Assembly: GCF_024298825.1 (NCBI RefSeq)
Contig: NZ_CP101153.1
Span: 2,542,001-2,606,000, forward strand
DNA from: Haloglomus salinum
Lineage (GTDB): Archaea; Halobacteriota; Halobacteria; Halobacteriales; Haloarculaceae
DNA: 64,000 nt
Direction: 5' to 3'
The position numbers and the translations under genes are program-made. The notes beneath the pieces are model-generated. The model did no database searches. It was not told where the DNA came from and saw only the letters and a program-made list of their open reading frames with translations. Shown piece after piece: positions 15,460-55,142 of the stretch (position 1 is its first letter; the number at the start of each line of letters is the position of its first letter).

Positions 15460-15995
15460 GGACCGTCTACGAAGCCCTCGCGCTCTCGACCGGCCGCGAC
15501 TCGCTGCGCTCCTCGGGGCCGGGTCGAGAGCGCTCGCCCTTCGATTCCGCCAGGGGATTGTATATGTCACAGGCGCGGCGTCCCTGCTCTTCCCCGGGTC
15601 GCGCGGCACTCGCGGGCAAGCCGCTCGGCACGCGCTCCCGGCCGGGGGTCGGTTGCTCGGCCGGCCGGTTCCGCAAACAGGAAGCGCGCGGGCGCCCTCA
15701 CTGGCGAACCCGCGAGCGCTAGCGAGCGTGGTGAGCCGCTCTCGGCGCCGGCGCGGGGAGGTCTGGGGACACTAGTGCTCCGCTGGAACCACCACGCCCG
15801 AACGCTCGGCCCAACTGGCCACAGGGCGGGACTGAAAGGGGCCGCCCGGCTCGACCGTTCCCGGGCGACGTAAGCACCGCAGCGAACGTAGTGAGCGAGG
15901 AGCGAAGCGAGCCCCGGAACGTCGAGCCGGCGGGGGCTTTCAACAGGGTTCCATCGCGGTCGTCGCTGCTGTCGCAGGGAGAGCGGGCGGGGTAT
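15460..15995 (+). repeat. Interspersed repeat element A (MITE-like, non-coding)
   Basis: An element of about 490 bp (15460-15950) plus a conserved flank. The left end (CTACGAAGCCCTCGCGCTCT) is an inverted relative of the right end, which reads GACGTAAGCACCGCAG (15867-15882), GAGGAGCGAAGCGAGC and then GGGGGCTTTCAACAGG (15932-15947). The interior holds GCTCGCCCTTCGATTCC, CTTCCCCGGGTCGCGC, GCTGGAACCACCACGC and the 19-bp core at 15824-15842. All of these blocks recur in element C, in the same order when C is read on the minus strand. The long open frames inside contain no recognisable protein, and frames are not kept between copies. Confidence 0.75.
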
Positions 15996-38376: not shown

Positions 38377-38477
38377 GGTCGGCGGTCGGGCGCCCGGGGC
38401 GATAAAGCCCGGGTGCCGCTTGCCTGTCGGTAGGCTGGTCGTTCGTGGTTACTGACCTGGGGAGTGGATAACAGCGC

Positions 38478-38950
38478 CGACGACCTCCTGTTGAAAGCCC
38501 CCACGGGCTGAGGGCACGGGAAGACGTTCCTGCTCGCCCTTCGGGCTGCGCGGTCGTCGGCGCTACGCGCCGACTGCCTGCGGGACGGAGTCCCGCTCTG
38601 GCTGCGACTTCCCTGGTTCGCGCCGTGGGCGCTCACCCCCGCGGCTCGCTGCGGTCCTCGGGCTCCAGAGGAGCCCTGCGGTCCTTACTTCGCCGGGGGA
38701 CCGCTCAGCCCGCGGCCCCTTTCAGTCCCGCCCGGTGTGGTTTTCCGAGGTCGCGTCCACACCATGTTAGCTCGGTGTGTGCGCCCCGTGGAACGAACAA
38801 CCTCGGGTGGGAATGGAAGGGGCTGGCCGCCTCGACCCGGCCCGGCCGACGCAAGCACCGCAACGAGCGACCGAAGGGAGCGACGTGAGGAGCGCAGCGA
38901 GGCCCGGCCGGTCGAGCGGTCAGGGGCTTCCGAGGTGGTTTCTTCCAGGG
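38478..38950 (+). repeat. Interspersed repeat element B (MITE-like, non-coding)
   Basis: An element of about 470 bp. The left module (CCTCCTGTTGAAAGCCCCCA) is inverted relative to the right module (GAGGAGCGCAGCGAGGC ... GTCGAGCGGTCAGGGGCTTC). Inside are GTCGGCGC-TAC-GCGCCGAC, GCGGGAC-GGA-GTCCCGC and GGGCTCC-AGA-GGAGCCC hairpins. The 19-bp core GCCCCTTTCAGTCCCGCCC is at 38715-38733 and a second, degenerate forward copy lies near 38810. It is the most palindrome-rich of the three copies. The rest of the 648-bp gap has no gene. Confidence 0.7.
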
Positions 38951-39024
38951 AGATATCGACTACACTTCCCTCCAACTACGTCCCCTCTCCCCACCGAACC
39001 GGGGGCGCCATCCTCGCCGGAGCG

Positions 39025-53186: not shown

Positions 53187-53939
53187 ATGGACCCCGCGGT
53201 GCTCCGGGACGACATGGTCGACAGCCTCGAACACGAGGCCAAGCGGTGCGTCCGGTCGGAGGCCGTGAGTGTCGCGATGCGCGAGGTGCCGCGCGAGGCG
53301 TTCCTGGACGACGAGCGCGCCGCGTACGCCGACCGCTCGTTCGAACGCCACGGGACGCGCGTCCTCTCACCCTCCACGGCCGCCCGACTGGTGGAGGCGC
53401 TCGCGCCCGAGTCGGGCGACGAGGTGCTCGTCGTCGGCGCCGGCGTCGGCTACACGGCTGCCGTCTGCGCGGAGCTCGCCGGCGCGCGCCACGTCCACGC
53501 CGTCGACATCGACCGCCGGCTGGTGTACGAGGCCCGCTCGAACCTGGCCGAGGCGGGCTACGGCGAGGTGCTCGTCGACTGTCGCGACGGCGCCGACGGC
53601 CTCCCGGAGTACGCCCCCTACGACCGCGTGCTGGTCGAGGCGGCGGCCATCGAACCGCCGCGCCACCTCGTTCGGCAACTCGCTGCGGACGGCCGGCTGG
53701 TGCTCCCACTGGGCGGCGGCGAGCAGACCCTCTCGGTCGTCACGCCGGACGCCCCGGGCGGCGAGGTGGCCGAGCGCCTCGGGACGACGGCGTTCGCCCC
53801 GATGCTGGTCGAGGGCGAGCAGGCCACCACGGTCGAGCGGAATCGAACGGTGCGCGAGGACCGCGAACACGCCCAGCGCGCGGCCGAACGGCGGAAGGGC
53901 TGGGAGCAGGAGTGGATCGACTGGGACCGAGAGTTGTAG
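53187..53939 (+). CDS. pcm: Protein-L-isoaspartate O-methyltransferase family protein
   Basis: A 250-aa SAM-dependent methyltransferase that likely repairs isoaspartate in ageing proteins. SMREVPREAFLDDERAAYAD-type entry is present as AMREVPREAFLDDERAAYAD. The Rossmann motif I is VLVVGAGVGYTAAVCAELAG, followed by VHAVDIDRRLVYEARSNL and LVLPLGGGEQTLSVV. The C-terminal ~30 residues are charged and helical. Start ATG 53187. A neighbouring repeat (element C) begins within ~120 bp of its stop. Confidence 0.85.
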   Translation: MDPAVLRDDMVDSLEHEAKRCVRSEAVSVAMREVPREAFLDDERAAYADRSFERHGTRVLSPSTAARLVEALAPESGDEVLVVGAGVGYTAAVCAELAGARHVHAVDIDRRLVYEARSNLAEAGYGEVLVDCRDGADGLPEYAPYDRVLVEAAAIEPPRHLVRQLAADGRLVLPLGGGEQTLSVVTPDAPGGEVAERLGTTAFAPMLVEGEQATTVERNRTVREDREHAQRAAERRKGWEQEWIDWDREL

Positions 53940-54059
53940 GTTGGCTCAGTATTCTGTGTATAATATTTTCAATCTGAGTTTTAGAAATATGTATGCTCCT
54001 TTCGCGATAAATGTCTCGTCCGCTCCCGCTGTGACCGTGAGAGTGGTGGCGGAGTCCTG

Positions 54060-54700
54060 TTGAAAGCTCCCGCCCGCTCTCCCTGCGACAGCCACAATCG
54101 GACCGTGTAGAAAGCCCCCGCCCGCTCGACCCGCCGGGCCTCGCTGCGCGCCTCGGGTTCGCTCCGCTCACCCTGCGGTGCTTACTTCGTCCGGGCGGGG
54201 TCGAGGCGGATTGTCGGCTCCGCCGACAATCTATTAGCTGGCCGGCTCCGCCGGCCAGCCGGGCGGCCCCTTTCAGTCCCGCCCTGTTGCCTGATTCACC
54301 GAGCGTTCGCGCGTGGTGGTTCCAGCGGGCCGCGGGGTCCCCACACCTCCCCGCGCTCGCGCTGTGGTGCTCCGGCACGCTCGCTCCGCTCGCGGCCTCC
54401 ACGGGGGTGGCGCGAGCGCGCTTCCTTTTCGTGGAACCGGCTTGTCGACCAACCGCCAGCCGGCCGGGAGCGCGTGGCGCAGCGCGGACGCGCAAGCCAG
54501 CGCGACCCGGGGAAGGGCAGGGCCACAGCGCCCGTGGAACAATCCATGCTCCTGGTGGAATCGAAGGGCGAGCACGCCCGACGAAGCACGACGACGTAAG
54601 CACCGCAGGCTCCGCGCGAGCGGAGCGAGCGCGGCGCCGAGGAGCGCAGCGAGGCGCGCGAGTCGAGCGTGCGAGGGCTTCGTAGATGTCTCCGTAGTCG
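54060..54700 (-). repeat. Interspersed repeat element C (MITE-like, non-coding)
   Basis: An element of about 640 bp, the largest copy. Both ends carry a related ~100-bp module in inverted orientation: GACGTAAGCACCGCAG at 54593-54608 on plus, and CTGCGGTGCTTACTTCGTC at 54173-54191. Each runs outward through GAGCGCAGCGAGGC and GTCGAGCG to GAGGGCTTC or GGGGGCTTTC. The 19-bp core is at 54266-54284. Hairpins ATTGTCGGC-TCC-GCCGACAAT and CTGGCCGGC-TCC-GCCGGCCAG lie beside it. Interior blocks GCTCGCCCTTCGATTCC and CTTCCCCGGGTCGCGC match element A. The remainder of the 870-bp gap is free of recognised genes. Confidence 0.75.
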
Positions 54701-54775
54701 CGGTAGTCTTGCTGTAGCGGGCGAGGGGTGCAAAGCCAGCTCTGTCCATCCCGGACTCGCGGTTTCGCAACTACC

Positions 54776-54780
54776 AAATA
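54776..54780 (+). promoter_or_regulatory. Weak TATA element of the atp operon
   Basis: AAATA centred near 54778, 32 bases before the atpH ATG at 54810, in an otherwise GC-rich end of element C. Confidence 0.35.
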
Positions 54781-54809
54781 CGCCCTTTCCGAAGTCCCCA
54801 CCGATAGAC

Positions 54810-55142
54810 ATGGCCAGGCCGGAAGTTCTCGACCGAGTCAAGGAGGCCGAGCGTGAGGCCGACGAGATCGTCGAAGAGGCGGAGGCCGACCGCGAGGAGC
54901 GCATCGACGAGGCCCGGGCGCGGGCCGAGGAGATCCGCGAGGAGGCTCGCGAGGCGGCACAGGATATGAAGGATGAACGCCTCGCGGACGCCCGCGGGGA
55001 GATCGAGGAGGAGCGCGAGGCCATCGTCGCGGAGGGCGAGGCCGACCGCGAGAAGCTGCAGGCTCGCGCTCGTGACCGGAAGGAGGAGGCGGTCGAACAC
55101 GTGGTGGACCTGTTCGAGGAGGCGGTCGATGCTCAGACCTGA
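54810..55142 (+). CDS. atpH: A-type ATP synthase subunit H
   Basis: A 110-aa coiled-coil protein forming part of the peripheral stalk (H/E heterodimer) of the archaeal ATP synthase. Almost all helical, with repeated E-x-x-x-A segments (EREADEIVEEAEADREER), and ends HVVDLFEEAVDAQT, the conserved end of the family. ATG 54810 (MARPEVLDRVKEAE) is 7 bases after a predicted transcription start. Its 3' end overlaps atpI by 14 bases. Confidence 0.87.
   Translation: MARPEVLDRVKEAEREADEIVEEAEADREERIDEARARAEEIREEAREAAQDMKDERLADARGEIEEEREAIVAEGEADREKLQARARDRKEEAVEHVVDLFEEAVDAQT

What the first reader, a model, noticed from the sequence alone, without database searches (positions are those of the whole stretch)
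54090..54690. Element C has ~100-bp terminal inverted modules with high similarity
The left end read on minus (GAAGTAAGCACCGCAGGGTG, then GAGGCGCGCAGCGAGGCCC) and the right end read on plus (GACGTAAGCACCGCAGGCTC, then GAGGAGCGCAGCGAGGCGC) clearly match over about 100 bp and both point outward to a GGGCTT motif. This is the terminal inverted repeat structure expected of a transposon-derived element.
Basis: seen in the sequence. Interest (0 to 1): 0.55.

Follow-up and report, generated by a model that had tools for sequence, protein, structure and literature searches.

The report
Paired DNA-hairpin repeat of haloarchaea
The two inverted ends of this element are two copies of a roughly 115-base foldable hairpin that is scattered between genes in most sampled salt-loving archaea and looks built to fold as single-stranded DNA, which makes it an uncharacterised repeat family rather than the ends of an ordinary transposon.

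Summary
In detail: the two ends of element C match in inverted orientation (71 identical of 92 columns, score 83; best of 300 shuffles 34). The transposon reading holds only in part. Each end is one copy of a hairpin module (M) of about 115 nt or more: window 54110-54279 (-) and 54557-54682 (+). The window's genome (Haloglomus, inferred) has 108 model matches. The model finds M in 246 of 292 haloarchaeal genomes; in a phylum sample of 120 genomes all 17 positives are of the same order. M is intergenic (2 of 70 centres in called genes), matches no Rfam family, and covaries strongly. Its apical triloops are mostly GNA (109 of 141; 13% in shuffled segments), a motif stable in DNA. The pair encloses no room for a transposase, and IS200-type TnpA is not associated. 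The element is old at this locus. On plasmids, M or its remnant lies upstream of an RPA-like OB-fold gene in 8 of 12 loci chosen either way. Best reading: a transposase-free repeat of paired hairpins recognised as folded single-stranded DNA by an unidentified factor.

The parts
54062..54109 (-). outer tandem unit: a second copy of the left end (GAAAGCTCCCGCCCGCTC, read on +) plus locus-specific spacer
   Evidence: direct repeat D3, spacing 48; equivalent units are longer arrays in other copies, e.g. 54 bp x 3.4 in L007 and 57 bp x 3.5 in L019
54110..54279 (-). hairpin module M1 (type I ends), with two additional perfect hairpins inserted at about 54210-54230 and 54237-54259
   Evidence: model R1 match 54110-54226(-), 71.2 bits, E 5.4e-16; inner end at 54270-54279 read directly
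54280..54556 (.). central non-coding block, shared with other class-1 copies in the genome
   Evidence: whole-genome search: pieces that cross it have about 68-88% identity, e.g. 83% over query 109-537 at C1:2450973
54557..54682 (+). hairpin module M2 (type II ends GAATCGAAGGGCGAG ... GAGGGCTTCG)
   Evidence: model R1 match 81.1 bits, E 1.5e-18
54683..54712 (+). outer flank; in this position copies are still similar (consensus TAGGTGTttcCGTcGTCGC)
   Evidence: flank conservation falls to background after about 30 bp in 23 type II modules
15470..15941 (.). second inverted module pair of the window: 15470-15548(-) and 15829-15941(+)
   Evidence: R1 matches 66 and 112 bits
38637..38931 (.). third inverted module pair, of a second class with a short centre: 38637-38700(-, core of a longer module) and 38810-38931(+)
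   Evidence: R1 matches 44.5 and 103 bits; class alignment
53187..53939 (+). left neighbour gene, protein-L-isoaspartate O-methyltransferase family
   Evidence: PF01135 E 1.4e-36
54810..55142 (+). right neighbour gene, archaeal ATP synthase subunit H
   Evidence: TIGR02926 E 2.5e-16, above its cut-off

Best explanation
Element C is a non-coding, transposase-free interspersed repeat of Haloglomus. It is built from two oppositely oriented copies of a hairpin module, M, that is found across the haloarchaea, placed around a shared central block. Shown: the anatomy, the copy number, the class-wide occurrence, the intergenic position, and complementary variation of the two arms together with preserved purine-rich mismatched loops. 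Inferred: M is recognised when one DNA strand is single-stranded and folded (during replication, transfer or repair), by a factor acting in trans. Conserved ends and internal loops give specificity, and the stem only has to pair. That recognition would let copies spread and rearrange without coding for an enzyme. The enzyme is not identified. At this locus the element is old and is now mostly rearranging rather than jumping.
For: 108 matches in the genome at E 0.01 or better (150 of 10,257 candidates scored), 30 neighbouring pairs of them in (-,+) order less than 1 kb apart. 246 of 292 class genomes and 67 of 78 genera. In a phylum sample 17 of 120 genomes, all 17 in the window's order. Covariation: 50 own modules, 94.2% of cells paired against 76.6% shuffled, score 0.430 against 0.136, slid controls at most 0.056; 103 modules from 80 named haloarchaeal loci, 31 of 35 pairs changed on both sides, 743 cells (that alignment was fitted to the structure). 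Triloops: 109 of 141 are GNA with the middle base free, against 773 of 6074 (13%) when the same segments are shuffled; GA faces GA next to the loop in 110 of 141. G.T pairs in only 36 of 1667 cells outside one position. M centres inside called genes 2 of 70, random points 1166 of 1400. Signs of mobility: two class-2 copies 94% identical over 469 bp at different places, and two of 21 collinear sites in G001 where the interval is too short to hold the element.
Against: No enzyme, no target-site duplication and no clean empty site was found. The empty-site borders (L051, L063) do not align base to base and could be deletions in G001. IS200-type TnpA presence does not follow M (M+Y+ 171, M+Y- 75, M-Y+ 31, M-Y- 15; p 0.86). 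With DNA parameters the window's right module does not fold into the family hairpin and 22 of 200 shuffles fold at least as well (z -1.29); three other folds have z -2.4 to -4.2. Complementary arm changes can also arise by template switching inside a palindrome (recalled mechanism), without selection. RNA parameters also fold M very well.
Confidence: 0.55

Rival explanations
1. MITE of a canonical transposon: the modules are terminal inverted repeats used by a DDE transposase supplied in trans.
For: Inverted ends, high copy number, no coding content; class-2 copies are 94% identical at different sites and their outermost ends look imperfectly inverted (read by eye).
Against: 42 of 108 matches have no partner by the model; arms of a single M are complementary to each other and vary between copies, which ordinary TIRs do not require; no target duplication seen in the few sites compared; no transposase with such ends was seen, but no search by the ends of known IS elements was possible.
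Confidence: 0.15
2. Structured RNA or transcript-end structure: M works as RNA, for example in 3' untranslated regions.
For: Very stable RNA folds, deep covariation, intergenic placement.
Against: GNA triloops and few G.T pairs fit DNA better; all gene contexts occur (tandem 35, convergent 17, divergent 11, locus edge 5, inside a gene 2; M along the tandem genes 13, against them 22); no Rfam match.
Confidence: 0.15
3. Plasmid-derived single-strand site: M belongs to a plasmid locus upstream of an RPA-like OB-fold gene (replication or transfer), and chromosomal copies descend from it.
For: 8 of 12 plasmid M loci examined lie next to the gene (4 of the first 8, then 4 of 4 fetched after the pattern was noticed); 8 of 12 plasmid loci picked by the protein keep M, its ends or a partial core; the 2 near-full-length own-genome genes have M or a remnant upstream; presence in 292 genomes is associated (166/80/10/36, odds ratio 7.5, p 1.2e-8).
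Confidence: 0.2

Closest known systems
SMR-A small mobile repeats of Haloquadratum walsbyi (PMC3119063, passages read)
   Same: about 110 bp, prominent inverted arms, non-coding, tens of copies, transposase unknown
   Different: SMR-A is described for Haloquadratum; its sequences could not be compared here. M is class-wide, with a shared conserved core and copy-to-copy covarying stems; insertion into IS605-type palindromes was not tested
PATEs of Haloquadratum (same passages)
   Same: non-coding, palindromes near the ends, core deletions
   Different: PATEs lack inverted ends and their palindromes are related to IS605-type transposons; here IS200-type TnpA shows no association
Bacterial REP/BIME/REPIN with TnpA-REP
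   Same: intergenic hairpins, often as inverted pairs, single-strand recognition (recalled)
   Different: REPs are 20-40 bp (abstract of PMC3733652 as listed); M is about 115 nt; only the IS200 subclass of this TnpA family is reported from Archaea (PMC6006769 passages)
Integron attC sites (recalled, no call)
   Same: conserved ends plus a stem whose sequence is free as long as it pairs; recognised as folded single strand
   Different: no integron integrase or cassettes were looked for; different core; a resemblance only

Membership tests
DNA transposon or MITE with terminal inverted repeats | inverted repeats at both ends | tested here: met
   ends align inverted, score 83 against maximum 34 in shuffles; but each end is itself a hairpin
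DNA transposon or MITE with terminal inverted repeats | target-site duplication | tested here: inconclusive
   no clean empty site in G001 comparisons
DNA transposon or MITE with terminal inverted repeats | ends shared with a transposase-bearing element | not tested
   no collection of IS ends was available; the 12 annotated plasmid M loci each hold a single M by the model, and transposase genes lie about 1.4 and 2.4 kb from it in two of them (L247, L248), not followed up
SMR-A | about 110 bp with prominent inverted arms, non-coding | tested here: met
   50 distinct modules of 102-126 nt used; the longest of the 71 extractions was 236 nt
SMR-A | sequence relation to HqIRS42/43/55 | not tested
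   their sequences were not held
SMR-A | insertion inside IS605/PATE palindromes | not tested
   centre of element C not compared with IS605 ends
PATE | link to IS200/IS605 TnpA | tested here: not met
   PF01797 in 202 of 292 genomes, no association with M (odds ratio 1.10, p 0.86); nearest M to two of the three own TnpA genes 25 and 57 kb, the third not located. Presence only; TnpB was not tested
REP/BIME | 20-40 bp palindrome with TnpA-REP | tested here: not met
   module is 102-126 nt in the 50 used; the TnpA family shows no association
Described structured RNA | match to an Rfam family | tested here: not met
   no match at gathering score in the window besides a tRNA; with relaxed threshold over 53940-54810 one hit far below its gathering score, E 0.25

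The most novel reading that the evidence does not exclude
M is a class-specific folded single-stranded-DNA site. It evolved on haloarchaeal plasmids next to an RPA-like single-strand-binding gene, serves a single-strand step (replication start, transfer origin or strand capture), and has colonised chromosomes as paired hairpins, a DNA counterpart of a structured RNA family with GNA triloops and GA mismatches as its fold code.
Probability: 0.22. Interest if true: 0.75.

Novelty: new variant of a known kind. Interest (0 to 1): 0.6.

Why it matters
A hairpin family with this much covariation, present in 246 of 292 sampled haloarchaeal genomes and without an Rfam match, was not found described in the searches made (open-licence papers only). 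If its folded form is DNA, haloarchaea offer a case where natural selection shows, over hundreds of copies, which single-stranded DNA folds matter in cells; the loop code fits mini-hairpins studied in the test tube. It also gives a repeat that marks at least one rearrangement point, and a handle for finding an unknown single-strand-acting enzyme.

Tried and rejected
IS200-type TnpA as mobiliser: presence in 292 genomes does not follow M. Known RNA family: none. Virus carriage: 0 exact matches of one core pattern in viral contigs and no match of one module among phage records; both test few forms of M. A larger autonomous version inside module pairs: the 30 own-genome (-,+) pairs have gaps of 80-468 bp, too short for a transposase; longer spacings were not searched for genes. 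Homology between the centre of element C and the plasmid non-coding region: the 40 best of 367 local matches, the only ones printed, fall on M itself or within about 25 bases of it. The OB-fold gene as the general mobiliser: 49 of 79 genomes at the match cap have it, no more than the base rate. Literature: searches; of PMC3119063, PMC12306157, PMC6006769 and PMC11101458 I saw passages found by term, not the whole text; the mini-hairpin papers (Hirao 1994, Yoshizawa 1997) were seen only as titles in a reference list.

Full report
Observation. The inverted similarity of the two ends of element C is confirmed: 92 columns, 71 identical, score 83, against a maximum of 34 in 300 dinucleotide-shuffled pairs and 45 in up to 2000 random inverted pairs of the window. 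The element lies between a protein-L-isoaspartate methyltransferase-family gene (53187-53939) and the gene for ATP synthase subunit H (54810-55142), which is followed by subunit I.

Genome and copies. A search of the window's own genome (4,190,378 bases, one contig) with element C gave 120 matching pieces at E 0.001 or better, with 40 of 219 candidates scored. G001, of the same genus, has a contig of the same length (4,179,737) as NZ_CP101166.1, Haloglomus halophilum ZY41, so the window is taken to come from Haloglomus (inference). All 4 genus genomes searched, the own one included, carry the repeat.

The module. Reading 74 core matches side by side showed that each end is a module with conserved ends, a conserved two-part core (GACGYAAGcACCGCAG ... 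GAGGAgCGCAGCGAG) and stems that differ between copies while staying complementary. 71 extractions had both borders, 41 with type I ends and 30 with type II ends, of 102-236 nt; a few are the same module taken twice. The 50 distinct ones of at most 126 nt were used; the other 21 were left out as longer or duplicate. The 56 short ones printed fold as one long hairpin interrupted by purine-rich loops, with RNA parameters. One core position swaps together (38 C-G, 12 G-C).

Covariation. On 50 own-genome modules aligned by sequence, 94.2% of 1717 cells pair (76.6% in shuffles, 32-45% when slid), 23 of 35 pairs change on both sides, score 0.430 against 0.136 and at most 0.056. The structure was taken from folds of these same sequences. 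On 103 modules from 80 named haloarchaeal loci (some of the same genus), 93.0% of cells pair, 31 of 35 pairs change on both sides, score 0.512 against 0.140 shuffled and at most 0.079 slid; that alignment was fitted to the model and leans towards it. Template switching inside palindromes could also make arms agree, but it should remove the mismatched loops, and these are kept (inference).

DNA or RNA. Of 193 modules in three sets with no sequence in common, the loop segment could be bounded in 181 (50, 35 and 96) and an apex was found in 157. The search took the shortest loop first: 141 had a triloop, 16 a loop of 4-7. Of the 141, 109 are GNA with any middle base, and 110 have GA facing GA next to the closing pairs. 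Shuffling the same segments gave 773 GNA of 6074 triloops, 13%, and far fewer triloops per segment. d(GNA) triloops are known as unusually stable DNA mini-hairpins (titles seen; the stability of tandem GA pairs in DNA is recalled). G.T pairs are 36 of 1667 cells when one position is set aside, 56 of 1717 with it. This favours single-stranded DNA as the folded form but does not prove it: DNA-parameter folds gave z -1.29 for the window's right module, which did not take the family hairpin, -2.51 and -2.41 for two other copies and -4.20 for the left module, whose two extra hairpins add to the score.

Distribution. The covariance model finds M in 246 of 292 class genomes and 67 of 78 genera at E 1e-4 or better, with at most 12 candidates scored per genome. 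In a phylum sample, 17 of 120 genomes match; all 17 are in the window's order, and 2 further genomes of that order do not match. Plasmids hold it too: 43 of 72,556 plasmid records match one module. No phage record matches that module, and no viral contig has the exact core.

Arrangement. In the own genome 108 matches were found. Among neighbours less than 1 kb apart, 30 pairs are (-,+), 2 are (+,-) and 1 is (-,-); 42 matches have no neighbour that close. Gaps within the (-,+) pairs are 80-110, 274-284 and 314-468 bp. M is intergenic: with a simple codon-usage gene caller trained on 40 annotated genes, 2 of 70 M centres fall inside genes against 1166 of 1400 random points; the 70 are one per named locus, out of 103 matches. 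Some outer ends carry tandem arrays of the end plus a locus-specific spacer.

History at this locus. G001 and G003 keep an element in the same gap; the right side is collinear (92% and 84%), the left half differs. The model finds a full-length module in G001 (98 bits) and a weaker one in G003 (48 bits). In G002 the two neighbour genes lie about 400 kb apart on opposite strands, so a rearrangement has its breakpoint here; no clear module was found at either G002 junction. The element is therefore old here, not a fresh insertion.

Mobility. Flanks of 30 own copies were searched in G001: both flanks were collinear for 21, one flank for 5, none for 4. Interval lengths in the 21 differ from the own genome by -1038 to +2100 bp. 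Two intervals (L051, L063) are shorter than the flanks alone, so the element is missing; in L053 only the ends of the hairpin remain; in L016 the centre is deleted with a short shared sequence at the junction (by eye; 20 of the 21 were fetched, L022 was not). Direction of change is not known. Two class-2 copies are 94% identical over 469 bp and another pair 96% over 366 bp, which suggests fairly recent spread or gene conversion.

Search for the enzyme. IS200-type TnpA (PF01797) is in 202 of 292 genomes but independent of M (171, 75, 31, 15; p 0.86). On plasmids, 8 of 12 M loci examined lie about 430-560 bp upstream of a 285-299 aa protein; the hit was in 4 of the first 8 loci fetched and in 4 of 4 fetched after the pattern was noticed, and two of the loci (L247, L253) are near-copies. 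In the 4 such proteins scanned, the C-terminal part matches haloarchaeal replication factor A (NF005553, E 7e-14 to 9e-19, far below that model's whole-protein cut-off). Of 12 plasmid loci chosen by that protein, 4 have a full M at the same place, 4 keep its ends or a partial core, and 4 have nothing; three of the end-only loci are near-copies of one another. The own genome has two near-full-length copies of the gene and two partial matches. The two near-full-length ones have M (about 1.05 kb upstream, with another reading frame between by eye) or a core-less remnant (about 0.6 kb upstream); one of the two genes has an internal stop; the partial matches were not examined. Presence is associated over 292 genomes (166, 80, 10, 36; odds ratio 7.5, p 1.2e-8), without correction for ancestry, but genomes at the match cap have the gene no more often than all genomes (49 of 79 against 176 of 292). 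I read this as an old plasmid home of M, not as proof that the protein moves it.

Verdict. The finding is correct as an observation and too narrow as an interpretation. It is best filed with transposase-free palindromic repeats (SMR, REP and MITE-like), as a class-wide variant with an unusual, DNA-like fold. Membership in SMR-A is untested because those sequences were not held; membership in PATE and REP fails on the features tested.

Noticed in passing
L019 555-1466 (own genome C1 about 2,021,197-2,022,108): A 16-bp unit (ACTCGCTGCGCTCCTC) repeated about 57 times inside one copy of the element; the orthologous interval in G001 (Haloglomus halophilum) is about 1 kb shorter.
   Followed up: partly
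L257-L268, about 500-850 bp upstream of the OB-fold gene: The non-coding DNA upstream of the plasmid RPA-like gene is itself conserved in the loci compared and holds long palindromes (GCGCGCTCTCGCTCGCGCC...GGCGCGAGCGAGAGCGCGC); it could be a plasmid origin or transfer site.
   Followed up: partly
G002 near 3,522,633 and 3,919,186: The genes on either side of element C are about 400 kb apart on opposite strands in this relative: a rearrangement breakpoint at the element.
   Followed up: partly
L229 (G001 C1:1,691,900-1,695,050): The site orthologous to own copy L059 holds about 2.1 kb of extra DNA in G001.
   Followed up: no
L051, L052, L054, L056, L063 and window about 38,400-39,000: A second class of the element, with a short centre, about 500 bp, with conserved outer ends (GTGCGTAGGTACTGG ... 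CTCCAACTACGTCCCCT) and a mosaic of two right-end types, suggesting exchange between copies.
   Followed up: partly
L247 4550-6100 and L248 5460-6104: Transposase genes lie about 1.4 and 2.4 kb from M on two plasmids; whether M relates to them was not tested.
   Followed up: no
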